Positions 25,510 through 48,811 of a stretch of 56,620 nt of DNA are shown here, one piece after another. The stretch is from Acidimicrobiia bacterium (GTDB lineage Bacteria; Actinomycetota; Acidimicrobiia; Acidimicrobiales; Poriferisodalaceae): NCBI GenBank assembly GCA_022824805.1, contig JAJDZE010000032.1, forward strand, positions 1 to 56,620, in the 5' to 3' direction. Position 1 is the first letter of the stretch, and the number at the start of each line of letters is the position of its first letter. A program made the position numbers and the translations under genes. The notes below the pieces were generated by a model, which ran no database searches, was not told the DNA's origin, and was given only the letters and a program-made list of their open reading frames with translations.

Positions 25510-26280
25510 TCACGGCTCGGTGCCGACGGTCGTGCCGAATCGGGCGACGGCTATCGCCGCGTTGTCGCTGAGCCCGATGGTGACAGCCTCGGCCATCAGC
25601 TTCTGAGCGGTGAGGTCGGCCGTGGCACGATCGCTGTCCTCGAGCGTCTCGCCGAGCTGGGCCGCCGGCTCGTAGGCGGCATACGGCGACACGAAGGGCT
25701 CATACAGGCCGTCGGTGGCGGCGACGATCAACGCTCCCGCAGCGGCGGCCATGTGCATCGTTCCGGCGATCTGGCTGTCGGTGAACCATCCGATGTCGTC
25801 GTCGCCGAGCTCTGGGTGCCACCCCAGCGTGCTGTTCACCGCATGTCCCGACCAACCGCCATGCGGACTGCTCGACCAGGCGAGGCTCTCGTCGTCGGAC
25901 GCCCGCGCGGGCAGCACGAAGATCGCACTGTCCCCCACCCATGCGCCGCACAGCCCGCCCGCCGGCGTCCACGCCACCACGCACATCGTGGTCATCGGCA
26001 GATCCCACTCCATCAGGCGCTCGCGCTCATCGGCCAGCACCAGAGCACAGACCGCACGGTTGGCTTCCCGCACGGCGGCTTCGGCCTCGGCGCGACCGGC
26101 GATGCGCTGCGGCAGCGCCGTGATCGCCGCCTCGGCCGCTTCATCGCCACGCGGATGCCCGCCGAGCCCGTCGCACACCGCAATCAGCCACGACCCGTCG
26201 TCATCGAGCCGCGCCGCAACCCGATCCTGCTGCTCAGCTCGCGGCCCGATCTCAAGCCGCGTCGCCACCGTGGCCTGCAC
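25510..26280 (-). CDS. PP2C-family Ser/Thr protein phosphatase, copy A
   Basis: The 256-residue protein contains the PPM/PP2C metal-site motifs: EQQDR (motif 1), VCDGLGGHPRGDEAAE (motif 2), WVGDSAIFV (GD motif), ATDGLYE and SDNAAIAVA. It consists of only the phosphatase domain, so it is cytoplasmic. Start is GTG 26280. A diverged copy lies at 35872-36648, each with a related ribbon-helix-helix antitoxin gene on the opposite strand upstream. Such stand-alone PP2C genes also occur in defence islands, where they may counter kinases. No partner kinase is visible here. Confidence 0.87.
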   Translation of the reverse strand: MQATVATRLEIGPRAEQQDRVAARLDDDGSWLIAVCDGLGGHPRGDEAAEAAITALPQRIAGRAEAEAAVREANRAVCALVLADERERLMEWDLPMTTMCVVAWTPAGGLCGAWVGDSAIFVLPARASDDESLAWSSSPHGGWSGHAVNSTLGWHPELGDDDIGWFTDSQIAGTMHMAAAAGALIVAATDGLYEPFVSPYAAYEPAAQLGETLEDSDRATADLTAQKLMAEAVTIGLSDNAAIAVARFGTTVGTEP

Positions 26281-29636: not shown

Positions 29637-29726
29637 GTTGTCGGCGACGTCGATCTCTGCGGTCTCGAACCAGTCACCCAGGCCTTCACCCGGGCAGCCG
29701 GACAGCACATGGGGCGTCAGTTCTGA
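29637..29726 (+). pseudogene. Tail fragment of the CBASS membrane-protein family
   Basis: Thirty codons read VVGDVDLCGLEPVTQAF, then TRAAGQHMGRQF and a stop. They match the C-terminal part of the CBASS-associated membrane protein at 42395 (VNDVDLSELEPVTQAFIRAA) and the fragment at 47308-47520. The stop overlaps the 3' end of the 315-residue gene on the other strand, as in the second copy. Confidence 0.6.
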
Positions 29727-30756
29727 CTGGACTGCAGTACGCGGATTGGCTGCGTCCCGAGGAGCTGCCCGAGGTCAATTCCGGGATCGCTCACGAATTC
29801 GGGCGGCTCACACACCGGATCAGCCCCGAAGTACAGATTCCACGCGGCTTGGCGGACTGCCGCTTCAAGCTGGGGATGCGGATGCTGCTTCTCGGTGAGC
29901 ATTCCCGCCCAGAACGGCATGTAACACAGATTCCAGCCAGCGGTGAACGCGTCGGGATCCCATGGGTTCCCCCAGATGTGACGAACCCCGAACCCCGAAC
30001 CCCGCTCTATCGGGCGTCCCGTGTACTTCTCCCACGCGTACTGCGGGTATGAGTTGTCATCAAGTGTGACTGGGCGATCTCGCCACAGAGCGGAGTCGCC
30101 GCGGTCGCATCCCGGGTAGTGCTCACGGCTGGTTCTGGCCCGCTCCGGGTACCACGGGGTCTTGCTCCGTACCGCATCGGGGTGAGCGAAGAACGAATAC
30201 TGAAATGCCGCTCGCACAATGGTGGTGCCGCCCTCCTGCAGCAGTTTCTCCAGAGCATCTATTGGGGCCGGCAGCGGCCCTCGCCACGACTCGATCCACA
30301 CCTGTGACGATGGCGACTGCGCGGGTTGCCGCTTGGCAGGCGCGGACGCCTGTGACGACCGCCGAGGTCGCTCGGTGGATGCCCACTCGCAGAACACCTT
30401 CAGGTTGTTCGCGTAGCTCAAGCGCGAACCCGCTGCCAAGGAGCCATTGCGGTTTCTGCGAGCTCGACGAGCGAGAAACGCATCGACGAGTGCATCATCG
30501 AACGCCGCCGGGTCGTGACCGCGCCCCAGCGAGAACTCGATCCAGTCCTCGACGATGCCCCGATACTGACGCTGCGCGCTCAACCCAACCCGCCGCTCGT
30601 GCTGCAAGTACTCCACAAACTGCGCGAGCCGCTGCGCCCCATCCGTCATGCTGCCCGGATTCATCGGCGCAGATCGTCGCGGAGAGCCGTCACCAAGGCA
30701 GCCAGGTCGGCAATCGTCCCATCACGGGCAACCCGCCGGACCGTGTAGCCGAGGGC
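29640..30756. repeat. Segmental duplication, copy 1 (1117 nt; partner 47425-48541)
   Basis: This block includes the CBASS-effector tail fragment, the whole 315-residue gene and the last 96 nt of the ADP-ribosylglycohydrolase gene. It is collinear and equal in length to 47425-48541. The 96-nt end (30661-30756 against 48446-48541) appears identical base for base; the gene itself has diverged to about 90% protein identity. Confidence 0.8.
29717..30664 (-). CDS. Unrecognised 315-residue protein with integrase-SAM-like N-terminus, copy 1
   Basis: Residues 10-96 resemble the core-binding (SAM-like) domain of tyrosine recombinases (RLAQFVEYLQHERRVGLSAQ then RLSYANNLKVFCEWA), but there is no catalytic recombinase domain. 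A Ser/Pro-rich linker (100-120) leads to a conserved C-terminal domain with H229 (GVRHIWGNPW), N245 (TAGWNLCYMPFWAGM) and H261 (KQHPHPQLE). That pattern could be a diverged HNH-type nuclease or a recognition domain; this is inference. The start overlaps the ADP-ribosylglycohydrolase stop by ATGA, so it is the last gene of a four-gene coupled operon. A copy with about 90% identity is at 47502-48449. Confidence 0.75.
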   Translation of the reverse strand: MNPGSMTDGAQRLAQFVEYLQHERRVGLSAQRQYRGIVEDWIEFSLGRGHDPAAFDDALVDAFLARRARRNRNGSLAAGSRLSYANNLKVFCEWASTERPRRSSQASAPAKRQPAQSPSSQVWIESWRGPLPAPIDALEKLLQEGGTTIVRAAFQYSFFAHPDAVRSKTPWYPERARTSREHYPGCDRGDSALWRDRPVTLDDNSYPQYAWEKYTGRPIERGSGFGVRHIWGNPWDPDAFTAGWNLCYMPFWAGMLTEKQHPHPQLEAAVRQAAWNLYFGADPVCEPPEFVSDPGIDLGQLLGTQPIRVLQSSQN

Positions 30757-32334
30757 GTCATCTTCGGAAATGTTTTTTCTGGCGTGATCTATCGCATCGT
30801 CCACGCACACTCCCCGGTCCAGTGGCCGAGGCGGCGGGCTGCTTGAGTCCTTCTGGACGGAACTTGACCTGCGGTTCAGCGCCTCCAGGCGCGTCATTGT
30901 CGGCAGTTCAAACTTGTTGCCCTCACTGAGTTCCTGCAACTTCGGCCGCCGCTTGACCAACAGCGTTTGACCGAAGGCGGTCATCACCCACTGCCACCCG
31001 AAGTCATCGCTGGCTGCACGAACGATGTCAGCGCCTATTTCCTCAACTGGGCCAAGGCCCTCGACCACCAAGCGCCCGCCGTCCCTGGCGAGTGCATCTG
31101 CCTGAGCTCTCGGCGCTGTCCACGTGAGGATGTCCGGATAAGTGTGTGCTTCGACCGGTTCGCCTCGGCTGAGAGCAGCTAGACGGCGCGCCTCGCTCTG
31201 CAGATAATCGCTGTCGAGAGGCTCTTCAGGCGGCAGCCCAGCCGACTTGCAAGCACCCATCAGTGCCCCGGTCATGGTGGCGATCGTGTCGGTGTCGGTG
31301 CCCACCGCGTTCGCAGCTACGACGACCGCTTCGTGTGCATCGCGGGCGGCTGCCGCCAAGGCCACAGCAGCAACGGTCGTCAGGATCCCGCTGCCGCGCT
31401 GGCGAGAATCGGTCAAGCCGAGGCGGTCAACGATTTCTTGGTAGGCCGCATCGGTGCGCTTCGCCTTGTCGACACAGCCTGCGGCATCGCCGATGGCTTG
31501 GTGAAGCTCACCAATTGCCGCATGCCACTCCTTCTCGAACGACATCCTCGCAGTGTCCTGCCAGAGTTCCATCCATGTGGATCCCAGATTTGGATGGGCC
31601 TCGATCGGCAGATACCAAGCCTCGATCCTGGCGGCGATGTGATGGCATTCGTGGAGGTCTGGGACAGAGCCAAGTCTCAGACAATGGGCGAGCGTCGCCG
31701 CATGGAAGCAGGCACCCACGATGGCGCGCGGATGCCCATGGGTGCAGACGCTGTCGGAAACCACGTCAAGCAGGAAGTCGTCCTCGCGGTCCTTTGACGC
31801 CCACACATGCGGCTGAATGCGCATCGCCGCACCGTTGCCACCTGCGTCGACCCATCCCGGAAACGTGTTGGCGTACCACAACGTCCGTGGCTTGCCCAGG
31901 TTCTTCGCAGCCGCTTTGGACGCCCGGCCGCCCCCCAAGGCATACGACGGCCAGACCGGCAACTCGATCCGGGCGAATGTCTCCACGTCAAACCCGCGGC
32001 CGGTCATGGACCGGCTCACAGCCATCCGAAGCTGAGTGTCGTCGGACCAGCACCCCGGAGGCAGTCCAACCTCGATTCCCTGCCTGCCGCCAACACGTCG
32101 TCGCCAAGCCATGAGCTGATCCAACGGCTTGCCATGCGTGCGGCGTTCTAGGCCTTTACGGTCTGTCAGCTCGCTGATGAAGCCAAGCGCGTCGCCGTAC
32201 GCAGCCCACAGCATCGAGCAGCGCACTCGCATCGCCATTGCATCCGTCGGGCTTTGGCTCGAGATCAGCGGTCCCGCGACGGTGTCGCCAAAAAGACCCG
32301 TCTGCTCAAGGGCGGCGCTCGTTGCCTCGGTCAT
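30661..32334 (-). CDS. ADP-ribosylglycohydrolase (DraG/ADPRH family) with extra C-terminal domain
   Basis: These enzymes remove ADP-ribose from modified targets using two Mg2+. The 557-residue protein has the family metal-binding motifs: YGDALG near 47, CWSDDTQLRMAV (97-100), GNGAAMR (167), HGHPRAIVGA (199) and GTDTDTIATMTGALMG (345-360). The catalytic domain covers about 35-390. A further 160 residues end in a helical tail (ALGYTVRRVARDGTIADLAA) that recurs at 48446. It is coupled by ATGA overlaps both to darT upstream and to the 315-residue gene downstream. It most likely reverses modification by the neighbouring DarT-type transferase, a job done by a macrodomain (DarG) in known DarTG systems. 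Confidence 0.87.
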   Translation of the reverse strand: MTEATSAALEQTGLFGDTVAGPLISSQSPTDAMAMRVRCSMLWAAYGDALGFISELTDRKGLERRTHGKPLDQLMAWRRRVGGRQGIEVGLPPGCWSDDTQLRMAVSRSMTGRGFDVETFARIELPVWPSYALGGGRASKAAAKNLGKPRTLWYANTFPGWVDAGGNGAAMRIQPHVWASKDREDDFLLDVVSDSVCTHGHPRAIVGACFHAATLAHCLRLGSVPDLHECHHIAARIEAWYLPIEAHPNLGSTWMELWQDTARMSFEKEWHAAIGELHQAIGDAAGCVDKAKRTDAAYQEIVDRLGLTDSRQRGSGILTTVAAVALAAAARDAHEAVVVAANAVGTDTDTIATMTGALMGACKSAGLPPEEPLDSDYLQSEARRLAALSRGEPVEAHTYPDILTWTAPRAQADALARDGGRLVVEGLGPVEEIGADIVRAASDDFGWQWVMTAFGQTLLVKRRPKLQELSEGNKFELPTMTRLEALNRRSSSVQKDSSSPPPRPLDRGVCVDDAIDHARKNISEDDALGYTVRRVARDGTIADLAALVTALRDDLRR

Positions 32335-32712
32335 TGGAACGCCTCCGGATCGATCTCAACTCTAGGTTCGTTGGGGAAGTGGCTCAGGGCAGCGATCACT
32401 GCCTCGTAGCCATCATCATCGCCCACAGTGATCTGATGCAGGTGCGTCAGCGGTAGTTCGAACGGGTACAGCACTTCGGCCTGCGGATCGGTCGTGAGAT
32501 CCGGCGGTTTGTCATTCCGCTCGGTCAGACTTCCGTACCAGCCAGCAACGCTCGGCGCGAAGAGTCGTTCGAAGCCGTAGATGCCACCCCAGCGTCTCGC
32601 AGCCGGGTAGATGTTGTTCGTCGTGCAGAACACGACGCCAGGATCGCCGAGGATGTCGGAGCCGAAGTTCAGAATCACCCATTCGGCGTCCGGGTGCTCG
32701 CGACACGAATAG

Positions 32713-33994
32713 CAGGGTGCTGAAAAAGTCCCGGTTTGGTGCTCGCGTTGTGGCTGCGGGTGCGGGACACTGTGGGGATGCGCGGGACTGTTGATGCTCA
32801 GACGGCGATGTTGTCGACTTTGTCGACGGAGGATCTGATCGGGGCGGATCATCCGATCCGGCGGATCAGGGCGACGGTGGATGCGGTGCTGGAAGGGCTC
32901 GATTCGGAGCTGGGGGCGATGTATCCGGCTCGGGGCCGCCCCAGCGTGCCGCCTGAGGTGCTGCTCAAGGCGTCGGTGCTGATGGCGTTGTTCTCGGTGC
33001 GCTCGGAGCGGGCGTTCTGCGAGCGGCTGCGTTATGACATGTTGTTCAAGTGGTTCTTGGGGCTGCGCATCGACGATGACGCGTTCGACGCGTCGACGTT
33101 CTCGAAGAACCGCCGGCGGCTGTTGTGCCATGAGATAGCGGATCGGTTCTTCGCGGCGGTGGTCGAGCAGGCGTATTTGCGGCGGTATTGCTCGAGCGAT
33201 CATTTCAGCGTGGACGGCACGCTGCTGGAGGCGTGGGCGTCGCACAAGAGCTTCAAGCCCAAGACCGCTCCCGGCGGCGAGACCGGCACGGCGAACAGCG
33301 GCGATGGGGCGCCGCTGGGCCGCAACCTTGACGCGGACTTCCGGGGCACGAAGCGCCGCAACGACACGCACGCCTCCACGACCGATCCCGACGCTCGCCT
33401 GTACCGCAAGTCCGCCGGGACAGCGGCGGTGCTGTGCTTCATGGGCCACATCGTGACCGAGAACCGCAACGGCCTCGTCGTCGACGCCGAGCTCACCCGA
33501 GCCGACGGCTACGCGGAGCGCGACACCGCCGCCAAGATGCTCAAACGGCGCCCGCCGCGCAAACGGCGGCGCACCGTGGGCGGCGACAAGAACTACGACA
33601 CCAAAGGGTTCGTCGCCGACGCCCGCGCTGCGGGGTTCACGCCCCACGTCGCCCAGAACACCACCAACCGCCGCTCCGCCATCGACGGGCGCACCACACG
33701 CCACGCCGGCTACCGGGTGTCCCAACGCAAACGCAAACGCGTCGAGGAACCCTTCGGATGGATCAAGACCATCGCCGGACGAAAACTCAGACACAAAGGC
33801 ACCGCCCGCAACCGGGCCGCGTTCTTGACCGCAGCCGCCGCCTACAACCTCGTCCGCATAGCCAAACTCGACACCCAAACCGCCTAAAACGCACCCCAGC
33901 CGGGCCGACACAGCCCACCAGAACCCCCAACAGGCACCCCCAAACCCGCCCGCACACACCCAAACAGCCACAAACACCGAATTTCAGCAGCCTG
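32713..33994 (+). mobile_element. IS5-like insertion sequence, 1282 bp, inside darT
   Basis: The left end CAGGGTGCTGAAA and the right end (read inward) CAGGCTGCTGAAA form 13-base terminal inverted repeats with one mismatch. A 4-base direct repeat ATAG (32709-32712 and 33995-33998) flanks the element as its target duplication. The single transposase gene is oriented opposite to darT. The clean ends and intact transposase indicate a recent insertion. Confidence 0.9.
32778..33887 (+). CDS. IS5-family DDE transposase
   Basis: The 369-residue protein has an N-terminal DUF772-type domain (ADHPIRRIRATVDAVLEGLD...RLRYDMLFKWFLGL) and a DDE catalytic domain with Asp in FSVDGTLLEAWAS, Asp in VGGDKNYDTKGF and Glu in KRVEEPFGWIKT. 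All are intact, so it is probably active. ATG 32778 follows a GTGGGG stretch and gives the family start; an in-frame GTG lies at 32736. It is the only gene of the insertion sequence. Confidence 0.9.
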   Translation: MRGTVDAQTAMLSTLSTEDLIGADHPIRRIRATVDAVLEGLDSELGAMYPARGRPSVPPEVLLKASVLMALFSVRSERAFCERLRYDMLFKWFLGLRIDDDAFDASTFSKNRRRLLCHEIADRFFAAVVEQAYLRRYCSSDHFSVDGTLLEAWASHKSFKPKTAPGGETGTANSGDGAPLGRNLDADFRGTKRRNDTHASTTDPDARLYRKSAGTAAVLCFMGHIVTENRNGLVVDAELTRADGYAERDTAAKMLKRRPPRKRRRTVGGDKNYDTKGFVADARAAGFTPHVAQNTTNRRSAIDGRTTRHAGYRVSQRKRKRVEEPFGWIKTIAGRKLRHKGTARNRAAFLTAAAAYNLVRIAKLDTQTA

Positions 33995-34302
33995 ATAGTT
34001 GTACATGCGCAGGTTGATGGCCGTCACAGACAGGTTGACGTAGGCGTGCCAACGCCTGTCGAGATGCCGGTCGACGGCGTTGGGCTCATATACGTACTGC
34101 ACCAACTCATCGACGGGAAGGTCCTGCCGGTTCTTGACCGCTCCGCTCGCCAGGATGCCCAATAGGCCACTGACAGTCGTGAAATGCACAATGCTGGTGA
34201 TGCCACGCTCGATCGCAGCCTCGGCAACTTCTGGACACCGTGGAGCGCCCTGCAACTGCTCGCGAGTCTGCGGTTGAGCCTCGGGCACCTGCTTGCCCGT
34301 GC

Positions 34303-35730
34303 TCATACCCGCACCAACTCATACGTCGAGGGGACCAACAGGCCGATCAGCGAGGATTCCTCGCCGGGCTTGTAGCCAACCATCACAGACTTGCGGGCCC
34401 TGCCCACGGCCATCGCCAGCATGCGACGAAGTCGTTCGAGATCAGCGTCGCCTTCATCGGTGCCGTGCGGCGTGACCTGTTGGCTGAGTCCGGGAAGCAG
34501 CACGTGATCGAACTCGAGTCCCTTTGCAGAATGAATCGTGCACAGCGCGACGTTGGGGCCGACGGGCCATTCGTTCTGTCTCGTCAGTTCACAGTAGGGA
34601 ATGGCCCGCTGGGCCAAGACTCGGCGTGCCTCGTTGAACCACCCGCCGCCTCGGGGCTGCAACAGCGCTACCGACTCGTTGTCAAAATCGGCGGTCTCTT
34701 CAAGCCGGTCTATCACGACTCTGAGCTGATCGCTGTACTTGCCCGCCACCACCAGCGGCTTGGCACCTGAGCGGCGGCACGCCTCGAAGTCCGGGAGCGC
34801 GCCGTCATCCTCCAGTGGGAGCCCTTCCACAAGCGGGTAGGCGAAGGCCGCTATCTCAGCCGTGTTGCGATAGTTCGTCTTGAGGGTGTGAATGATCTCT
34901 GGACGAGCGTTGATGCCGACCTCACGCCACCTGAAGTACTGCGGATAGATGCGCTGCACCGCGTCCAGCACGAACGTCGTGTTGTGCGGGTCGTGCAGGT
35001 GCTGCTGGATGGCCCGGATCTGGTTTGCCGAGAAATCCTGTGCCTCGTCGACGATCACGACGTCGTAGGCATCGCGGGACGCAGCAGCTGCGGCGAGCAT
35101 AGTGAGGTCGCTCCAGTCGATCTTCCCGCGTCGCCGCTTGGAGTCCATGTAGGCCGGTATGGCCTCGTAGATCAACTTCTCACGCGTCGGACGGGCGACA
35201 CGCGGCGCCTTGCCTCGGCCCTCCCGCTCGACCGTGAGGTAGCCCGAGAGGTCATCGGGGTCGAAGTCGACAGGGTCGTACTCGAAGCGGCCTAGGACGT
35301 ACTGGACTTCGTCAACGAAGAACTCATGTTGGCGGTTCGTAGCGAAGCTATCGATGTGCGGACGGAGCATTGCTGCGGTCTCATCGCCCCCGACGATGTC
35401 GACATCGCCCACGAGCGACCTCGCCCACCGACTGAAGGTCTTGATCTCTAGGTCCAACGCATCGTCCTGCGGCGTTGCGTTCCGGGCAAGCTCGGTGATG
35501 TAGCCCTCAAGGGTCCTGTTGAAGGTCAGGACGAGCACGCGTACGGGCGCATGGTGGCCAAGGCGCTCGCGTCGGTCCAAGCGGACCCGGATCTGTTCCT
35601 TGAGCCGCAGGAGAGCCGTCGTGGTCTTGCCGCTTCCTGCAGCACCCCGGATTATTCGGAACCCCGGTTTGACATCGGCGAGCACTTTCAATTGCTCGGG
35701 GGTCGGCGTGACGGGCGGCAAAACGCGCAT
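34303..35730 (-). CDS. UvrD/REP-like superfamily 1 DNA helicase
   Basis: The 475-residue protein has helicase motifs in order: motif I GAAGSGKTTTAL near 24, motif Ia LVLTFNRTL, motif II VVIVDEAQDFS, motif III-IV region FVLDAVQRIYP and LKTNYRNTAEIA, motif V CTIHSAKGLEFDHVLLPGL and motif VI MAVGRARKSVMVGY. It is shorter than UvrD (about 720), like other defence-linked SF1 helicases. ATG 35730 is preferred over TTG 35814. Its stop overlaps the darT start (ATGA), so it is the first gene of the ADP-ribosylation operon. It could supply or sense the single-stranded DNA on which DarT acts. A PP2C gene lies 141 bases upstream on the same strand. Confidence 0.88.
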   Translation of the reverse strand: MRVLPPVTPTPEQLKVLADVKPGFRIIRGAAGSGKTTTALLRLKEQIRVRLDRRERLGHHAPVRVLVLTFNRTLEGYITELARNATPQDDALDLEIKTFSRWARSLVGDVDIVGGDETAAMLRPHIDSFATNRQHEFFVDEVQYVLGRFEYDPVDFDPDDLSGYLTVEREGRGKAPRVARPTREKLIYEAIPAYMDSKRRRGKIDWSDLTMLAAAAASRDAYDVVIVDEAQDFSANQIRAIQQHLHDPHNTTFVLDAVQRIYPQYFRWREVGINARPEIIHTLKTNYRNTAEIAAFAYPLVEGLPLEDDGALPDFEACRRSGAKPLVVAGKYSDQLRVVIDRLEETADFDNESVALLQPRGGGWFNEARRVLAQRAIPYCELTRQNEWPVGPNVALCTIHSAKGLEFDHVLLPGLSQQVTPHGTDEGDADLERLRRMLAMAVGRARKSVMVGYKPGEESSLIGLLVPSTYELVRV

Positions 35731-35871: not shown

Positions 35872-36648
35872 TCACGGCTCGGCGTGGACGGCTTTGCCGA
35901 TTCGTGCGACGGCTACGGCGGCGTTGTCGCTGAATCCGATGATGACCGCGTCGGTCATCAGCTTCTGTGCGGCGAGGTCGGCATTCGCGCGGTTGCTGTC
36001 CTCGAGCGCCTCACCGAGTTGGGCGACTGGTTCGTACATGGCGTACGGCGAGACGAATGGCTCGTAGAGACCGTCGATGGCGGCGACGATCAGCGCACCC
36101 GCAGCGGAAGCCATGTTCATCGTGTCGGCGATCTGGCTGTCCGTGAACCATCCGATGTCATCGTCACTCGGCTCCGTGTGCCACCCCAGGGTGCTGTTCA
36201 CCGCATATCCCGACCAGTCTCCGTGCGGGCTGCTCGACCAAGCGAGGCTGTCGTCGCCCGAGGCTCGTGCGGGCAGCACGAAGATCGCACTGTCGCCCAC
36301 CCATGTGCCGCACAGCCCGCCTTCCGGTGTCCACGCCACCAAGCACATCGTGGTCATCGGCAGCTCCCACTCCATCAAGCGCTTGCGGGCGTCGGAAGGC
36401 ACCAGCGCGCGCACCGCACGGTTGGCTTCACGCACGGCGGCCTCCGCCTCCGCGCGCCCGCTGATGCTCTTCGGCAACGCAGCAATGGCCGCCTCGGCCG
36501 CCTCGTTTCCAGGCGGATGCCCGCCAAGCCCGTCGCACACCGCGATCAGCCACGACCCGTCGTCCTCGAGCCGCGCAACAACCCGATCCTGCTGCTCAGA
36601 CCGCGGCCCGACCTCCAGCCAAGTCGCCACAGTGGTCTCCAGCGACAC
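35872..36648 (-). CDS. PP2C-family protein phosphatase, copy B
   Basis: The 258-residue protein is a close paralogue of the PP2C at 25510 and has the same metal motifs (EQQDR, VCDGLGGHPPGNEAAE, WVGDSAIFV, IDGLYE, SDNAAVAVA). GTG 36648 is chosen because it matches the start of copy A; a GTG at 36687 would add 13 residues. It lies upstream of the helicase-darT operon on the same strand with a 141-base gap, so read-through into that operon is possible. Confidence 0.85.
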   Translation of the reverse strand: MSLETTVATWLEVGPRSEQQDRVVARLEDDGSWLIAVCDGLGGHPPGNEAAEAAIAALPKSISGRAEAEAAVREANRAVRALVPSDARKRLMEWELPMTTMCLVAWTPEGGLCGTWVGDSAIFVLPARASGDDSLAWSSSPHGDWSGYAVNSTLGWHTEPSDDDIGWFTDSQIADTMNMASAAGALIVAAIDGLYEPFVSPYAMYEPVAQLGEALEDSNRANADLAAQKLMTDAVIIGFSDNAAVAVARIGKAVHAEP

Positions 36649-36902
36649 CGCGGGGACCTGCTCGGCCCGAGTTCGGCGCGTTGTCACTCGACGCCGTGTT
36701 CATGCCAACGTCAACCGTGTTCAGCCGGGGATCAAGTAGGCGACCGGATTCGCACGGCCGGCAGCGTAACGGTGGCATCGCCCGGCCTAAACGGAGATCG
36801 CCTCGATATACCGACAGCCGCGCATCGCCAACGACGCTTCGACGAGGCGCTGCGTGCCCCTCTCATCCGATGCTTGATCCGCGAAGGGGCATGATGTGGT
36901 GC

Positions 36903-39317: not shown

Positions 39318-40409
39318 TTACGACAGTGGCCAGTCGAAGCGCTCAAGCAGCTCGTGGCCCTCGGAGTGCTTCCACCAGCGCATGTGTCGCAGGCGTCCGA
39401 CGACGATGCCGGGGGCGATGCCGACTGACCGGGCGAATCGCACCACGTCGTCGTTGGTGTGCAACTGGCCGAGCACGGGCTGGTGTTCGCTCGGAATGAG
39501 TCCACGGGCAGCGAACGCGTCGGCTTCCTGCTCGACTGGACCGGCGCTGTCATCGTCGTCGATGAATGTCTCCTTCTTGGAGTGCAGCAGGAGATGGCCG
39601 ATCTCGTGGAACAGCGTGAACCAAGCGATGTCGTGCCGCTTGTGCCGGGTGCTGATCTGGACCAGAGCCTTGTTCGGCCCGAGCCACCTCGTCGCGCCAT
39701 TCAGCCGAGTTCCTCGGATCTCAGGTTCAACCACAAACGCAACGCCGACATGCCGGAACCACTCCTGTGCCGTGGGCACCCACACAGACGGGTCGGCCTC
39801 GTTCGTCAAGGAGCGAAGCTCGGGCAGCAGGGCCCGCAGCGCCGACTTGTCGAACTCCTCGCACTCCACCTTCGATCCCTCGATCTCACCGATGCGCAGC
39901 CACGCCGCCACCGCGCCCGGGTTCTTGGTGAAGGCCTTCGACGCTCGGTAGGCGGCTGCCGGTCTTTCCCAGAGGTCATGCCACGCTGCCACGCTTGCAA
40001 CCCCGAAGAACGCACAGACCTCCCTCACGCGCTCCGCACCCTGATTCCCCCTTCCGATCCGGCCTCTCTTCACTAGTTCCGAGACGGGAAGATCGTTCAG
40101 CCAGCCGATGTCTTGCGCCAACCGCTCCTGCTCTGCGCAGCGGGTGAGATGCGTGCGGTAGTTCAGCTCCAGGTTGTTCCAGAATTCTGCGGGCACTCGG
40201 GTGACCTGCTCCAAACCCAACGCCGTTTCGGTGGTGATCGGTGCCGAGCCCTTGGTGATCTGATTGACGTGCTTCGCCGACAGGCCCAGGCGGGCAGCGA
40301 GTTCTGCCTGGGTCATCCCATGCTCATCCAGCCATTCGACCAGCGTCTCGCCCGGCGCATATACGAGGTCGGGTTCGTAGACGTAGCGGGTCTCCGTACG
40401 GGTGCCCAT
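39318..40409 (-). CDS. HigA-like HTH protein fused to an ImmA/IrrE metallopeptidase
   Basis: The 363-residue protein has an XRE helix-turn-helix at about 31-55 (GMTQAELAARLGLSAKHVNQ) and a C-terminal ImmA/IrrE zinc peptidase domain with H268-E-x-x-H272 (TLFHEIGHLLLH) and a downstream acidic segment (EQEADAFAA). It follows a HigB-type toxin gene by 25 bases, so it is the antitoxin of that pair, with the DNA-binding part acting as autorepressor. The peptidase could cleave the repressor after a stress signal. It is divergent from the CBASS operon, resembling in composition the CapH (HTH) and CapP (ImmA-like) regulators of some CBASS systems, here in one chain. Confidence 0.85.
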   Translation of the reverse strand: MGTRTETRYVYEPDLVYAPGETLVEWLDEHGMTQAELAARLGLSAKHVNQITKGSAPITTETALGLEQVTRVPAEFWNNLELNYRTHLTRCAEQERLAQDIGWLNDLPVSELVKRGRIGRGNQGAERVREVCAFFGVASVAAWHDLWERPAAAYRASKAFTKNPGAVAAWLRIGEIEGSKVECEEFDKSALRALLPELRSLTNEADPSVWVPTAQEWFRHVGVAFVVEPEIRGTRLNGATRWLGPNKALVQISTRHKRHDIAWFTLFHEIGHLLLHSKKETFIDDDDSAGPVEQEADAFAARGLIPSEHQPVLGQLHTNDDVVRFARSVGIAPGIVVGRLRHMRWWKHSEGHELLERFDWPLS

Positions 40410-43213: not shown

Positions 43214-44500
43214 TCATCCAGGACGGCCAACTATTGTTTGATAGGTGGCCTCATCGCTGAGATCCTTGACGAGCTTGTCTACCCATTCAGGTGTATAGCC
43301 ATAACCGTCCATGAGCTTGTCGTATATGCAGTAGCGAGGATTTGTCGCCTCGGGTTCCGCAGCGCCTTTTGAAGGCCGTACCTTGAAGTGCTTCCAGCAT
43401 CTTGTATGGGTATCCATCGTGAATCGAGCATTCAGGCGACTGGTGACCTGTTCGACTACTGCTTTAGGTTTGAACAAGCCGTCGGAGGCAATAGCGATTC
43501 GTTTCGGCTTAGTCACGACGGAGGTACGTGGAAGTGCGGCAAGGAGGTCTTTGCTGATCTCGTCTGGCTTGACAAAGGTCACCGCTGTATCTGCACTGCG
43601 TTCCCGATTGGCGGTTGTGGGCACGAAGAAGATCCTCATGCAGTAGCGAGTGTCGCCGAGAATATCTTCGGGTACTTGCTCACGTTCTCGATCTAGGAAC
43701 TCGACGACATCTAGCGGAAGCCGCGCTTGGATACGCTTCAATTCGGGTTCGCGTTGAAACTTGCCGATCTGAAGCGGCAGATAGAGTTCATCGCCGAGGG
43801 CAGCTTCCGTACCGAATTCTCGGACGAGAATATCCTCGAAATTGATCAGCATCGACTGTGCATGTCCAGCCGTAGGCGCATCGAGTGCTGGCAGATAGCG
43901 ATGTGCGATAAGGTTGCGTAGACGCAAGAAGTACTTCAGGTTCTCAGCCGCGGGTGGTGGGATTCGAGCATCGCCAACGAGGCCGATTAGTTCATCTGTA
44001 TCGCGCACTCGGGGACGGCCATTAACCATCTTGGTCTTGCCTGCTGCGTCTCGGTCGAAGTAATCGATACCGTCGCGATCGAGAATCGCTTGCATCACTG
44101 AGTTCCACGCTATGACCATCAGCAGGATGAACTGCTCTGTGCGGTAGCCACTGCTTGGGTCGTTGAACGCCCGAAGGGCTGCCAACGCACTCTCACGAGC
44201 CTTGGCGACCAGCAGGTACTCGGCACTCAGCTCGTCGGATTCAGATGGCGAGATGCCGTGGACTCGGAGCATCCGCTCAAGTTCCTCAATGCGTTGCGCC
44301 TGACGGGAGCGGCCTTCGGTCGAGATGTCGAGCCACTTCTTGATGTAGGCGGTAAATGCCTTGCCGTGAGAGGTGGGGTTGTTCCAGTACTCGATCTCAA
44401 GCGCTGACTTGGGTTCGCCCGCTTGCCAGCGACCGAGCATCTCTTGGGCCACTCGGCGGTGGTCGTCGTCGCTCAGGCTCTCGTTGACAACGCCTGCCAC
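43214..44500 (-). CDS. DUF3644 (HEPN-like) protein
   Basis: The 428-residue protein carries a DUF3644 domain: ESALAALRAFNDPSSGYRTE, then FILLMVIAWNSVMQAIL and NLKYFLRLRNLIAHRYLP. R195-N-L-I-A-H200 is an R-x4-H motif, the catalytic signature of HEPN ribonucleases. The N-terminal part (ALEIEYWNNPTSHGKAF) is a common extension in this group. DUF3644 genes occur in defence and mobile regions. It is monocistronic between the CBASS operon and an IS1634-like element inserted 190 bases upstream of its start. Confidence 0.75.
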   Translation of the reverse strand: MAGVVNESLSDDDHRRVAQEMLGRWQAGEPKSALEIEYWNNPTSHGKAFTAYIKKWLDISTEGRSRQAQRIEELERMLRVHGISPSESDELSAEYLLVAKARESALAALRAFNDPSSGYRTEQFILLMVIAWNSVMQAILDRDGIDYFDRDAAGKTKMVNGRPRVRDTDELIGLVGDARIPPPAAENLKYFLRLRNLIAHRYLPALDAPTAGHAQSMLINFEDILVREFGTEAALGDELYLPLQIGKFQREPELKRIQARLPLDVVEFLDREREQVPEDILGDTRYCMRIFFVPTTANRERSADTAVTFVKPDEISKDLLAALPRTSVVTKPKRIAIASDGLFKPKAVVEQVTSRLNARFTMDTHTRCWKHFKVRPSKGAAEPEATNPRYCIYDKLMDGYGYTPEWVDKLVKDLSDEATYQTIVGRPG

Positions 44501-44691: not shown

Positions 44692-46634
44692 CCCGAGTTT
44701 GACGGGTTGGGGTGGTGGTGGGGTGGGTCGCAGGCTTGTGACCTGCGGTTTTGGGTTCCGGGGCGGTGTCTGGTGACAATAATGTAGGGGCGACATATTG
44801 CCGTTCCGGGTGGCGTGGTCGGTGTAGGCTGTTGACATGTTCGTGAAGACGACACGCCGTCGCAGGGGCGACAAGACATATGAGTACCTGTCGTTGGTGG
44901 AATCGGTGCGCGACGGCGCGCGCACCGGGCACCGCACGCTTTTGCGGCTGGGCGAAGTGACCGCTTTGCGGGGCTCGGGCCAGCTGGGCCGCATCGTGGC
45001 GGCCTTGGAGTCCCATCTCGAACGCGAACGGGTCGACCCGTCGGCGCTCGAGGCCGACAGCGCCCCCGCTGTGGGCGGCGCGGCGTGCGCGTGGGCGGTG
45101 TGGCAGCGGCTGGGCCTGGACGGCTGGTTCGCCCGCCTGGGCGCCGATCGGGGCGCGTCACGGCTCGGCGACGCGGTGTTCGCGATGGCCGCGAACCGGC
45201 TGGCGGCGCCGTGCTCGAAGCGGCGGCTGGGCGAGTGGGCCGAGCGCGACGTGGCGATGCCCGACGGGTGGCAGCCGCCGTCGCTGGCGCAGCACTACCG
45301 GGCCCTGGACGCGGTCGCGCACGCCAAGGACCCCACTGAGGAGTTCTTGTTCGGGCAGTTGTGCGACCTGACGAACATGGACCTGCGGTTCGTGTGCTAC
45401 GACCTGACCTGGGCCTATCTCGAGAGCGCGCAGGCCCTCTCGGACCGGTTCGGGTCCAAGGCGTTCGGCTATTCCCGCGACCACCGCCCCGACCGGCCCC
45501 AGGTCGTGATCGGGTTGTTGTGCACCGGCGACGGGATGCCGATAGCGCACCGCGTGTTCCCCGGCAGCACCAACGACGCAGCGACGCTGCCCGGCATGCT
45601 CGACGACCTCCAGTCCCGGTTCGGCGTCGGCCGCATCTGCGTGGTCGCCGACCGGGGGCTGATCACCGCCGACAACGTCGCCGCGGTCGCCGACGCCGGC
45701 TTCGACCATGTGCTCGCCACCCGGCTGCGCCGCGACGCAGCCTGCCGCGAAGCGCTCGAGTCGATCGGCGACGACACCCAATGGACAGAACTGCCCGACC
45801 ACCGATGCCGCGCCGCCGAGACCGTGCTCGCAGACGGCGCCCGAGCCGTTGTCGTCGAGTCAGACGCCCGCGCCCGACGCGACACCGCCCGCACCGCCGA
45901 GCTCGCCGCCAGAGCCGAAGCCGAACTGCTCGCGCTCGAAGAACGCGTCCGCGCCGGACGGCTCGCCGACCCCGCCAAGATCGGACGCGCCGCCCAGCGC
46001 ATCCTGGGATCCAGCGGCGTCGCCCGCCTGTTCGACCTCGAGATCGGCCACGGCAGATTCCTCTACCACCACGACCAGGACGCACGCCTCTACGAGAAAC
46101 TGCTCGCCGGCCGCTACGTGCTCACCACCAGCCTCGCCCCCCGCCAAGCCGACACCGCCCAAGTGGTCGCCGCCTACCGGCAGCTCACCGACGTCGAAGC
46201 CAGATTCCGCACCCTCAAGGACTTCTTGCACCTGCGGCCCATACGCCACTGGACCGAACAACGCGTCCGCGGCCACATCGCCATATGCGTCCACGCCGCC
46301 GTCGCAGAAACCCTCATCGCACGCGACCTCGCCCAAGCCGACATCGCCGACCCCGACCAGCCCCACCAGCACCTCACCGCCCCACGAGCACTGCGAGAAC
46401 TCGACCGCATCCGCCAAGTCCAACTCGCCGCCGACCACAACCGCATCACCCTCACCACCCGACGCAGCCCCCTCCAAGCCCAAATCCTCGCCGCCACCCA
46501 AACACCCACCCGCACCTGGGACAAAGCCCAAATCCACTAGCCCCGGCCGCCGCCGACACACAGATGTAGTGGAAACACCAACCCCACGCGACCCCCCTGA
46601 CCAGCACAAACACAAAACACCCGTCAAACTCGGG
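44692..46634 (+). mobile_element. IS1634-like insertion sequence, 1943 bp
   Basis: Perfect 16-base terminal inverted repeats CCCGAGTTTGACGGGT bound the element, and a 5-base direct repeat TCAGG (44687-44691 and 46635-46639) marks the target duplication. It encodes one full transposase. It lies in the intergenic region upstream of the DUF3644 gene and does not obviously break a coding frame. Confidence 0.9.
44837..46540 (+). CDS. IS1634-family transposase
   Basis: The 567-residue protein begins MFVKTTRRRRGDKTYEYLSL, typical of IS1634 enzymes, and keeps the IS4-superfamily catalytic positions: Asp in FVCYDLTWAY, Asp in ICVVADRGLIT and Glu in LTDVEARFRTLKD (YREK-like region). The length matches the family. 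The reading frame is intact, so the element may still move. Confidence 0.92.
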   Translation: MFVKTTRRRRGDKTYEYLSLVESVRDGARTGHRTLLRLGEVTALRGSGQLGRIVAALESHLERERVDPSALEADSAPAVGGAACAWAVWQRLGLDGWFARLGADRGASRLGDAVFAMAANRLAAPCSKRRLGEWAERDVAMPDGWQPPSLAQHYRALDAVAHAKDPTEEFLFGQLCDLTNMDLRFVCYDLTWAYLESAQALSDRFGSKAFGYSRDHRPDRPQVVIGLLCTGDGMPIAHRVFPGSTNDAATLPGMLDDLQSRFGVGRICVVADRGLITADNVAAVADAGFDHVLATRLRRDAACREALESIGDDTQWTELPDHRCRAAETVLADGARAVVVESDARARRDTARTAELAARAEAELLALEERVRAGRLADPAKIGRAAQRILGSSGVARLFDLEIGHGRFLYHHDQDARLYEKLLAGRYVLTTSLAPRQADTAQVVAAYRQLTDVEARFRTLKDFLHLRPIRHWTEQRVRGHIAICVHAAVAETLIARDLAQADIADPDQPHQHLTAPRALRELDRIRQVQLAADHNRITLTTRRSPLQAQILAATQTPTRTWDKAQIH

Positions 46635-47307: not shown

Positions 47308-47520
47308 TCACGGCCCGTCGGCAAGGCGTATGCACTGCTCGTCGAACGAACCCGTGCCGTAGCGGGACCGCTGATCGCCGAAGGGTGGGATCAGCGATCT
47401 CGCGCAGCATCGGCTGACATGCGTGTCGGCGACGTCGATCTCTCCGGTCTCGAACCAGTCACCCCGGCCTTTATCCGGGGAGCCGGACAGCACTTGTGGC
47501 GTCAGTTCGCGCTGGACTGA
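47308..47520 (+). pseudogene. Fragment of the CBASS membrane-protein family
   Basis: The frame reads SRPVGKAYALLVERTRAVAG, then PLIAEGWDQR and VGDVDLSGLEPVTPAF, closely matching the C-terminal half of the protein at 42395 (SRPVGEAYALLVEQTRAVAG). The transmembrane half is gone. It ends WRQFALD with a stop that overlaps the 3' end of the 315-residue gene. Confidence 0.7.
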
Positions 47521-48541
47521 AGTACGCGGATTGGCTGCGTCCCGAGGAGGTGCCCGAGGTCGATGCCGGGATCGCTCACGAACGCTGGCGGCTCGCACAC
47601 CGGATCAGTCTGGAAGTACAGACTCCACGCGGCTTGGCGGACTGCCGCTTCAAGCTGCGGATGAGGATGCTGCCGCTCGGTGAGCATTCCCGCCCAGAAC
47701 GGCATGAAACACAGGTTCCAGCCAGCGGTGAAGGCGTCGGGATCCCAAGGGTTGCCCCAGATGTGACGGACCCCGAACCCGGATCCCCGCTCGATCGGAC
47801 GGCCGGTGTACTTCTCCCACGCGCGCTGCGGGTATGAGTTGTCATCAAGCGTGACTGAGCGATCTCGCCACGTAGCCGAATCGCCGCGCCTGCGTCCTGG
47901 ATAGTGCTCACGGCTGGTTCTGGCCCGCTCCGGGTACCACGGCGTCTTGCGTCGTACTGAATCGGGGTGAGCGAAGAACGAGTACTGAAATGCCGCTCGC
48001 ACAATGGTGGTGCCGCCCTCCTGCAGCAGTTTCTCCAGAGCATCGATCGGGGCCGGCAGCGGCCCGCGCCACGACTCGATCCACACCTGTGACGATGGCG
48101 ACTGTGCGGGTGGCTGCTTGGCGGGCGCGGACGACTGTGACGACGGCCGAGGCCGCTCGGTGGATGCCCACTCGCAGAACACCTTCAGGTTGTTCGCGTA
48201 GCTCAAGCGCGAACTCGCTGCCAATGTGCCATTGCTGTTTCTGTGAGCTCGACGATCGAGAAATGCGTCGACGAGCGCTTCATCGAACACCGCTGGATTG
48301 TGACCGCGCCCCAGCGAGAACTCGATCCAGTCCTCGACGATGCCCCGATACTGAGACTGCGCGCTCGACCCAACCCGCCGCTCGTGTTGCAAGTACTCGA
48401 CAAACTGCGCGAGACGCTGCGCCCAATCCGTCATGTCGCCCAGATTCATCGGCGCAGATCGTCGCGGAGAGCCGTCACCAAGGCAGCCAGGTCGGCAATC
48501 GTCCCATCACGGGCAACCCGCCGGACCGTGTAGCCGAGGGC
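47425..48541. repeat. Segmental duplication, copy 2 (1117 nt; partner 29640-30756)
   Basis: Collinear and equal in length with 29640-30756: effector tail, 315-residue gene and 96 nt of the preceding gene's 3' end. Both copies are in the same orientation, 17.8 kb apart, so recombination between them could delete the intervening darT and CBASS operons. Confidence 0.8.
47502..48449 (-). CDS. 315-residue integrase-SAM-like protein, copy 2
   Basis: Ungapped hand alignment with copy 1 gives 32 differences in 315 residues. Differences cluster in the N-terminal and linker parts, while residues 121-160 and 211-246 are unchanged, including H229 and N245; H261 is also kept. That pattern suggests purifying selection on the C-terminal domain. 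The start overlaps the preceding short reading frame by ATGA (48446-48449), as copy 1 does with the glycohydrolase gene. Here the full glycohydrolase, darT and helicase genes are missing, so the protein may act alone or be an orphan. Confidence 0.78.
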   Translation of the reverse strand: MNLGDMTDWAQRLAQFVEYLQHERRVGSSAQSQYRGIVEDWIEFSLGRGHNPAVFDEALVDAFLDRRAHRNSNGTLAASSRLSYANNLKVFCEWASTERPRPSSQSSAPAKQPPAQSPSSQVWIESWRGPLPAPIDALEKLLQEGGTTIVRAAFQYSFFAHPDSVRRKTPWYPERARTSREHYPGRRRGDSATWRDRSVTLDDNSYPQRAWEKYTGRPIERGSGFGVRHIWGNPWDPDAFTAGWNLCFMPFWAGMLTERQHPHPQLEAAVRQAAWSLYFQTDPVCEPPAFVSDPGIDLGHLLGTQPIRVLQSSAN

Positions 48542-48811
48542 TTTGTCATCACCGATGTTCTCGCGTGACTGTCGGAGGTACTCCAAGCCAGTCCAGCCAT
48601 CGACCGAGTTGTCCACGATGAACAGCCCGCTGCCATCGCGGCTCTGCGCCAGATCGCTCACCTCAGCGAACATACCTGTGCCTTGTGACATGACCGGTGC
48701 CCGCGTGGCAACGCAGACGGTGAAGTTCTGCGGCGCGTCGGCTGGGGCGTCACTGGGCCAAACGACCGATGCGACTCCGAGCGGAAACCGTGGGTGTGGA
48801 GAATCTTGGCG
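48446..48811 (-). pseudogene. Chimeric remnant ending in the ADP-ribosylglycohydrolase tail
   Basis: The last 32 residues (ALGYTVRRVARDGTIADLAA...) are identical to the end of the glycohydrolase at 30661. Before them the frame reads GSGLFIVDNSVDGWTGLEYL, reminiscent of the FIVDNS motif near the start of some defence-linked SNF2 helicases, and stays open back to the stop of the next gene at 48812. The first ATG is at 48691, giving 81 residues. It is probably a truncated gene joined to the conserved tail. Confidence 0.5.

What the first reader, a model, noticed from the sequence alone, without database searches (positions are those of the whole stretch)
29717..35730. Four-gene, ATGA-coupled operon around a DarT-type ADP-ribosyltransferase with an ADP-ribosylglycohydrolase
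UvrD-like helicase, DarT (DUF4433), DraG-type glycohydrolase and a 315-residue SAM-like protein are joined by three successive ATGA overlaps (34303, 32331, 30661). Known DarTG systems pair DarT with a macrodomain (DarG) to reverse thymidine ADP-ribosylation. Here a structurally unrelated hydrolase occupies the antidote slot, and a helicase plus an unknown protein are translationally coupled. This suggests a distinct DNA ADP-ribosylation defence system. The motifs are visible in sequence; the antidote role and defence function are inferred.
Basis: partly seen in the sequence, partly recalled or inferred. Interest (0 to 1): 0.9.

Follow-up and report, generated by a model that had tools for sequence, protein, structure and literature searches.

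The report
Helicase–DarT–glycohydrolase toxin-antidote operon, DarT broken
A rare but widely spread three-gene bacterial module pairs a DNA-marking toxin with an unexpected type of eraser enzyme and a helicase, and probably works as a phage-defence or toxin-antidote system, although the copy in this genome has its toxin gene cut in two by a jumping element.

Summary
Intact relatives exist, one in the same genus. The first three genes are a conserved module: 73 of 79 loci fetched with the AGH carry helicase-DarT-AGH in that order and strand, across at least nine phyla, with 4-nt overlaps at 59 of 73 and 47 of 74 junctions. The fourth gene is not part of it (no ORF match in 79). A profile of the DarT matches guanine-type DarT1 (PDB 8baq, E 1e-28), and a tree puts it on the NADAR-linked DarT1 side, not the macrodomain-linked DarT2 side (100/100). 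So this looks like a third DarTG-type arrangement: DarT1-lineage toxin, DraG/ARH-fold hydrolase in the antidote slot, UvrD-type helicase as near-constant third member. [quoted passage not shown] Antidote activity, DNA target and phage defence are inferred; a controlled look at neighbours showed no clear defence enrichment. New variant of a known kind.

The parts
34303..35730 (-). UvrD-like SF1 helicase, first gene of the conserved module (475 aa from the ATG at 35730; frame open to 35814)
   Evidence: PF00580, PF13361; GajB-like PADLOC hits; Walker A and DE-Q-D motifs kept in relatives
33999..34306 (-). DarT, N-terminal piece, cut off by the insertion
   Evidence: PF14487 positions 2-75, below cut-off; 59% and 80% identical to the N-terminal ~100 residues of intact relatives L026 and L013
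32710..33998 (.). IS5-family insertion element inside DarT; transposase ORF 32736-33887 on the + strand
   Evidence: borders from other copies of its ends in the genome
32331..32709 (-). DarT, C-terminal piece with the conserved QAEVLYP motif (putative catalytic Glu)
   Evidence: (PF14487 positions 85-200, 6e-11)
30661..32334 (-). ADP-ribosylglycohydrolase (DraG/ARH fold), frame intact, in the antidote slot; C-terminal extension after about residue 365 without a Pfam match
29717..30664 (-). 315-aa protein: recombinase-type SAM-like N-terminal part plus a C-terminal domain of unknown function; not part of the conserved module
   Evidence: (no ORF match in 79 loci)
47424..48571 (-). Second, degraded copy: tail of an AGH (to 48571) followed by a 90% identical 315-aa protein (47502-48449)
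   Evidence: (92% over 1118 bp)

Best explanation
The first three genes are a toxin-antidote module. DarT, of the DarT1 lineage, transfers ADP-ribose from NAD+ to bases of single-stranded DNA, most likely guanine, and blocks replication. The DraG/ARH-fold AGH encoded directly downstream removes that mark from the cell's own DNA and so plays the part that NADAR plays in DarTG1 and the macrodomain in DarTG2. The UvrD-type helicase opens or tracks DNA and either supplies single strands to DarT or senses phage replication intermediates. Shown: gene order, co-conservation, lineage of DarT, conserved catalytic motifs. Inferred: substrate base, antidote activity, helicase role, phage defence. In this genome the module is probably off because an IS element splits DarT; the AGH and helicase frames remain open.
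For: 73 of 79 AGH-anchored loci hold helicase-DarT-AGH adjacent on one strand; 59 of 73 helicase-DarT and 47 of 74 DarT-AGH junctions are 4-nt start/stop overlaps. DarT-anchored searches: every DarT placed on the DarT1 side had a hydrolase next to it: 2 of 2 (AGH), 4 of 4 (1 AGH, 3 NADAR), 4 of 4 plasmid records (AGH; and the annotation row). Profile of the DarT hits E. coli C7 DarT1 8baq at 9.6e-29; the chains 7omu and 7yk3 only at 0.026 and 0.34. Tree: 34 macrodomain-linked plus 2 'other' DarTs against 86 AGH- plus 4 NADAR-linked ones, support 100/100; with more NADAR-linked rows and 4 macrodomain rows as outgroup, 100/99. Conserved residues: DarT His41 and Glu182 in 74 of 74; AGH T198, H199, T348, D349 in 79 of 79 and D347 in 78 of 79. 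AGH profile hits DraG and ARH structures. Of 21 PF03747 places in 20 DarT-bearing genomes only the 3 of this type sit beside a DarT. Some relatives keep AGH but lack an intact DarT (L033, L039, L055 none found, L043 degraded), and so does the window, as expected if AGH is the protective part.
Against: No biochemistry. ARH enzymes tested so far do not remove base-linked ADP-ribose: ARH3 was inactive on DarT-modified genomic DNA (passage in PMC9967889), the Streptomyces ARH-like SCO5809 on guanosine-modified RNA (passage in PMC11833690), and human ARH-family enzymes had no or negligible activity on uracil-modified RNA (passage in PMC13036486). The loss asymmetry comes from an AGH-anchored sample, so AGH losses are under-counted; in one viral contig (L111) DarT is intact while the AGH frame is split after 355 residues. 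Six of 46 DarT places in the two surveys had no hydrolase found in the stretch held; two of them fall on the DarT2 side and four were not placed. Nearest neighbours show no clear excess of PADLOC hits (51 models matched among 133 neighbour ORFs, 14 among 105 control ORFs, each by one or two proteins).
Confidence: 0.6

Rival explanations
1. The AGH acts on ADP-ribosylated protein, RNA ends or small ADP-ribose compounds, not on DNA bases. DarT in this system then modifies another target, or another host enzyme handles the DNA mark.
For: The ARH/DraG enzymes described in the passages read act on proteins, phosphate ends or O-acetyl-ADP-ribose (PMC9503650; PMC11833690).
Against: The AGH is directly downstream of a DarT1-lineage toxin in 74 of 79 loci, the place held by the base-specific NADAR in relatives.
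Confidence: 0.22
2. The module is mainly a plasmid or island addiction system rather than phage defence.
For: Found on plasmids, in an integrase-bearing E. coli island and beside Tn7-type transposition genes; no clear excess of defence genes among nearest neighbours.
Against: It lies inside a BREX locus in Nostoc, 13 kb from RADAR in an E. coli island, and a helicase is not a usual part of addiction pairs (established knowledge, recalled). DarTG1 and DarTG2 both protect against phage (PMC12255303 passage).
Confidence: 0.3
3. The four genes of the window form one four-gene system, with the 315-aa protein as a working member.
For: ATGA overlap with AGH; the pairing AGH tail plus 315-aa gene is repeated at 47424-48571 and, as a deletion remnant, in a same-genus genome.
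Against: No ORF match in the 79 loci (L028 keeps only that 44-residue remnant); plasmid and viral searches found none; its C-terminal domain occurs elsewhere without AGH or DarT in the stretch read (one weak general helicase match, 1.3e-17, in L208).
Confidence: 0.05
4. The break in DarT is an assembly artefact of a draft genome.
For: The element is multi-copy, and its other 11 end pieces lie at contig ends.
Against: Both DarT pieces lie in order between helicase and AGH on one contig, and the nucleotide alignment to L013 resumes on each side of the element.
Confidence: 0.08

Closest known systems
DarTG1 (DarT1 plus NADAR antitoxin, E. coli C7)
   Same: Toxin of the same lineage; toxin gene followed by a hydrolase gene
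   Different: Hydrolase is DraG/ARH fold instead of NADAR; UvrD-type helicase is a near-constant first gene (found in 1 of 10 NADAR-linked loci read, L182)
DarTG2 (DarT2 plus macrodomain DarG), present elsewhere in this genome (G000:C5)
   Same: Two-gene toxin-hydrolase logic, PF14487 toxin
   Different: DarT falls in the other half of the tree (100/100); no macrodomain; extra helicase
ART-ARG toxin-antitoxin pair predicted in certain Aeromonas phages (PMC9503650, passage)
   Same: An ADP-ribosyltransferase toxin predicted to be paired with an ADP-ribosylglycohydrolase-fold antitoxin
   Different: Described there as comparable to DraG-DraT; DarT and a helicase are not named in the passage, and neither the AGH nor a relative's DarT of this system matches any of 50,697 phage records. 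Not compared directly
DraT-DraG nitrogenase regulation
   Same: Hydrolase fold and motifs
   Different: DraG equivalog model far below cut-off (29.5 against 337 bits); partner is DarT, not DraT
Gabija GajB and other UvrD-type defence helicases
   Same: Helicase family and size
   Different: Distinct partners; no GajA-like gene seen among the window genes scanned
ARG-centred systems predicted in PMC9503650 (section 3.8, passages)
   Same: ARG/ADP-ribosylglycohydrolase at the centre of a conflict system
   Different: Those were selected for lacking a coupled ADP-ribosyltransferase

Membership tests
DarTG2 | DarT of the macrodomain-linked clade | tested here: not met
   Trees (intact relatives); PDB profile
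DarTG2 | Macrodomain DarG next to DarT | tested here: not met
   The gene after DarT is PF03747 in the window and an AGH-profile match in 74 of 79 loci. The macrodomain profile was run on the DarT survey loci only; 9 of 9 of its matches sent to Pfam were PF01661
DarTG1 | DarT of the DarT1 side | tested here: met
   Intact relatives group with NADAR-linked DarTs, 100/100 and 100/99; the window pieces themselves were not put in a tree
DarTG1 | NADAR antitoxin (PF22397) beside DarT | tested here: not met
   The downstream gene is PF03747; the NADAR profile was run only on L209-L215, Pfam on four neighbours
DarTG (any) | DNA-base ADP-ribosylation reversed by the partner | not testable with these tools
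   Needs enzyme assay
ADP-ribosylglycohydrolase (ARH/DraG superfamily) | PF03747 fold with metal-site motifs (SDDT, DTD) | tested here: met
   the SDDTQ and GNGxAMR columns are partly circular because they were the search patterns, THG and DTD are not
DarT catalytic family | Intact gene with catalytic Glu | tested here: not met
   In the window: gene split by IS. In relatives: Glu in 74 of 74
Gabija | GajA OLD-type nuclease partner | tested here: not met
   None among the window proteins scanned with Pfam or PADLOC
Anti-phage defence system | Protection against phage | not testable with these tools
   No assay
Anti-phage defence system | Enriched among known defence genes | tested here: inconclusive
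   BREX, RADAR and Abi neighbours in some records, but nearest-neighbour PADLOC tallies not clearly above control

The most novel reading that the evidence does not exclude
A third class of DarTG system: a DarT1-lineage toxin whose antidote is a DraG/ARH-fold enzyme that has evolved to remove ADP-ribose from DNA bases, something no ARH enzyme in the passages read is reported to do, with a helicase as near-obligate third component that directs the toxin to phage DNA. The antidote slot after DarT would then have been filled by three unrelated folds.
Probability: 0.5. Interest if true: 0.8.

Novelty: new variant of a known kind. Interest (0 to 1): 0.62.

Why it matters
DNA-base ADP-ribosylation antitoxins are described as macrodomains or NADARs (stated in PMC11833690, passage). 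A DraG/ARH-fold enzyme in that slot, conserved across phyla, predicts a new activity for a large enzyme family and gives a direct test of it. It also suggests that records labelled 'DarT ssDNA thymidine ADP-ribosyltransferase' in these operons name the wrong base. The helicase offers a handle on how DarT toxins find phage DNA.

Tried and rejected
Fourth gene as part of the system: rejected (no ORF match in 79 loci; no plasmid or viral relative). Single continuous DarT: rejected. DarT2/thymidine assignment: disfavoured. Strong defence-island enrichment: not shown. I took the nearest ORF of at least 150 aa within 5 kb on each side of the 79 loci, leaving out those over 900 aa (133 ORFs, crude longest-ORF gene calling), and 105 control ORFs from 12 stretches of 7 module-bearing genomes (5 of 17 stretches asked for did not exist). 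At 1e-10 PADLOC gave 51 and 14 models (of the 51 only 25 are listed); the tool does not say how many proteins matched any model. Phage records: no match for the window's AGH or for a relative's DarT among 50,697. Structure prediction was not possible, so the folds of the 315-aa C-terminal domain and of the AGH extension stay unknown. Whether AGH coupling arose once or twice is unresolved: a small AGH group (Shinella, Rhodococcus, Streptomyces NBC_01220, Nostoc, viral contigs L110 and L112) falls with NADAR-linked DarTs at weak support (95/76; 94/86).

Rows dropped: the tree left out L131 (no matching ORF), L138 and L144 (short), L145, L183 and L184 (partial), the window pieces and loci that repeat others. 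The tree dropped four near-copies, kept only 4 of the 34 macrodomain rows as outgroup and neither 'other' row, and carried L211 under the NADAR label although its neighbour matched neither the NADAR profile at 1e-5 nor any Pfam family. Loci L028, L053 and L063 are the same places as L013, L027 and L026. Four of 16 plasmid hits (H46-H49) and one of the eight (H3) were not opened.

Full report
What is in the window. On the minus strand between 35730 and 29717 lie a UvrD-type helicase, two separated pieces of a DarT gene, an ADP-ribosylglycohydrolase (AGH) and a 315-aa ORF. The DarT gene is not continuous: an IS5-family element with its own transposase (32736-33887 +) sits inside it. Eleven other pieces of the element's ends in the genome, all at contig ends, stop at window 32710 and at about 33998. 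The two DarT pieces match PF14487 positions 2-75 and 85-200 and residues 1-106 and 104-229 of the intact 229-aa DarT in a same-genus genome. The window's 548-aa 'DarT' ORF is therefore mostly the antisense strand of a transposase, and this copy is very probably inactive.

Same genome, second system. The genome also carries a canonical DarT followed by a macrodomain DarG on another contig (PF01661 2.7e-16). This gives an internal contrast.

Conservation. Eight plasmid records hold a relative of the AGH. I opened seven. In five the annotated order is UvrD-type helicase or '3'-5' exonuclease', DarT, AGH or a larger AAA helicase, DarT, AGH inside a BREX locus. In Cereibacter the record does not annotate the helicase and in Shinella none of the three, but my profiles find all of them. 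The annotation row of a second Cereibacter record, not opened, names the three genes too. Profiles built from the relatives show helicase-DarT-AGH adjacent on one strand in 73 of 79. The other six: L083 is cut by the contig end within DarT, L032 lacks most of the helicase, L043 is degraded, and in L033, L039 and L055 no DarT was found beside the AGH (L039 holds only 2.8 kb upstream). The start codon of DarT overlaps the helicase stop by 4 nt in 59 of 73, and that of AGH overlaps the DarT stop in 47 of 74. Tree labels of these loci span Actinomycetota, Pseudomonadota, Acidobacteriota, Chloroflexota, Bacteroidota, Planctomycetota, Verrucomicrobiota, Thermodesulfobacteriota and Myxococcota; many are metagenome bins, whose labels can err. 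Of nine viral-contig loci, five have all three genes, one of them with the AGH frame split.

Rarity. 3 of 396 genomes of the phylum have the AGH at 1e-20, the window's own included. Among complete E. coli genomes 21 of 5,426 carry the operon of the Salmonella plasmid, all over the full query at 99% identity or more, all on the chromosome.

Which DarT. The DarT profile finds E. coli C7 DarT1 (8baq, 9.6e-29) and hardly the chains 7omu and 7yk3. A maximum-likelihood tree of 126 DarTs separates 36 rows (34 macrodomain-linked, 2 with no hydrolase found) from 90 rows (86 AGH-linked, 4 NADAR-linked) with support 100/100. A second tree of 97 rows with more NADAR-linked ones gives 100/99 for the same split (it warns of long branches). 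The large AGH-linked clade is well supported (100/98; 99/97). So the toxin belongs to the DarT1 side. DarT1 is reported as guanine-specific and NADAR as its antitoxin (PMC11543638, passages). The public product name 'ssDNA thymidine ADP-ribosyltransferase' is probably misleading here; that is an inference from lineage.

Surveys by DarT. In 396 genomes of the phylum 20 have a DarT at 1e-10: 15 beside a macrodomain, 2 beside this AGH and helicase, 3 with no hydrolase found. In 369 gammaproteobacterial genomes 24 have one, at 26 places: 19 macrodomain, 3 NADAR, 1 AGH (in the genome around which the sample was drawn), 3 with none found. One NADAR-linked locus, L182, also has a UvrD-type helicase directly upstream of DarT, so the helicase is not tied to the AGH alone. 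Of ten NADAR-linked loci read it is the only one.

The hydrolase. The AGH has the DraG/ARH fold by profile. T198, H199, T348 and D349 are invariant in 79 of 79, D347 in 78; the SDDTQ and GNGxAMR motifs are conserved too but served as search patterns. Beyond about residue 365 the window protein has an extension with no Pfam match. In a small subgroup the C terminus is a glyoxalase-like domain by Pfam: Rhodococcus L020, Shinella L019 and viral contig L112, but not Streptomyces L022 or viral contig L110 at 1e-3. In 20 DarT-bearing genomes the only PF03747 genes beside a DarT are those of this type (3 of 21 places).

The fourth gene. The 315-aa protein has no ORF match in the 79 loci, none in plasmids and none in viral contigs (close relatives only). 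Its C-terminal domain (about residues 123-313) is found at 65% identity in two other genomes of the class, in proteins without the SAM-like part and without a Pfam match. In the window it is duplicated at 47502-48449 together with the last 41 residues of an AGH, and a same-genus genome keeps a deletion remnant that joins an AGH start to a piece of this gene. It is a lineage-specific rider.

Mechanism. Most likely DarT marks single-stranded DNA, AGH erases the mark from the host chromosome, and the helicase provides or senses single-stranded DNA. The first step rests on the DarT1 lineage and on His41 and Glu182 in 74 of 74 (that these are catalytic is recalled and fits the alignment to DarT1). 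The second rests on position and co-conservation only. Known ARH enzymes failed on base-linked ADP-ribose in the studies seen (PMC9967889, PMC11833690, PMC13036486, passages), so this would be a new activity. The third is inference.

Defence. Anecdotes favour it: inside BREX in Nostoc, 13 kb from RADAR in an E. coli island, near an Abi gene and a multiubiquitin/ThiF cluster in Rhodococcus, beside Tn7-type genes in Streptomyces tsukubensis. Cereibacter, Salmonella and Streptomyces NBC_01220 showed no evident defence neighbours in the annotated stretch. The controlled look at nearest neighbours did not show a clear excess. Defence is plausible but not established.

Literature. Nine searches found no paper that describes a DarT-ADP-ribosylglycohydrolase-helicase operon; I saw listings, and passages of ten papers. 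PMC11543638 says that DarTs occur in operons with different hydrolases, citing de Souza and Aravind 2012, which is not held and was not read. [quoted passage not shown] So a glycohydrolase-fold antitoxin for an ART toxin has been proposed before in general terms; its pairing with a DarT1-lineage toxin and a helicase is what I found no mention of. The novelty claim is open to the unread sources and to preprints.

Noticed in passing
window 25510-26280 and 35872-36687 (-): Two PP2C-family phosphatase genes, 84% identical over 767 bp of DNA, lie on either side of the region; with the duplicated 315-aa gene they suggest repeated local duplication.
   Followed up: partly
window 39318-40409 (-): HigA-like HTH plus IrrE (M78) protein, PADLOC PD-Lambda-2_B 8e-32; a 30% identical relative lies beside the operon on the Rhodococcus plasmid (L020 6535-7611).
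   Followed up: partly
L149/L159 (G453:C1:596433-597613) and L172/L186 (G549:C12:39722-40902): Two DarT-like genes in tandem upstream of a macrodomain DarG; the first genes of the two pairs form a clade of their own on a long branch (2.43).
   Followed up: no
L182 (G520:C259): UvrD-type helicase directly upstream of a DarT1-side DarT, with a NADAR antitoxin gene in convergent orientation: the helicase joined to the NADAR-type system.
   Followed up: partly
L020 4619-6421, L019 5974-7707, L112 8004-9785: AGH proteins of a small subgroup that end in a glyoxalase/VOC-like domain (Pfam).
   Followed up: partly
L210 2069-4609 (Deinococcus plasmid): DarT domain at the end of an 846-aa protein between an N-6 DNA methylase and a NADAR gene.
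   Followed up: no
L177 1456-2652 (G686): DarT and a macrodomain match in one 398-aa ORF, a DarT-DarG fusion.
   Followed up: no
L016 683-5694 (Streptomyces tsukubensis pST1): TnsA-, transposase-, ATPase- and TniQ-like genes next to the module, as if it were cargo of a Tn7-like element.
   Followed up: no
window 43214-44500 (-) and 44837-46540 (+): DUF3644 protein and a second DDE transposase of another kind between the two copies of the 315-aa gene.
   Followed up: no
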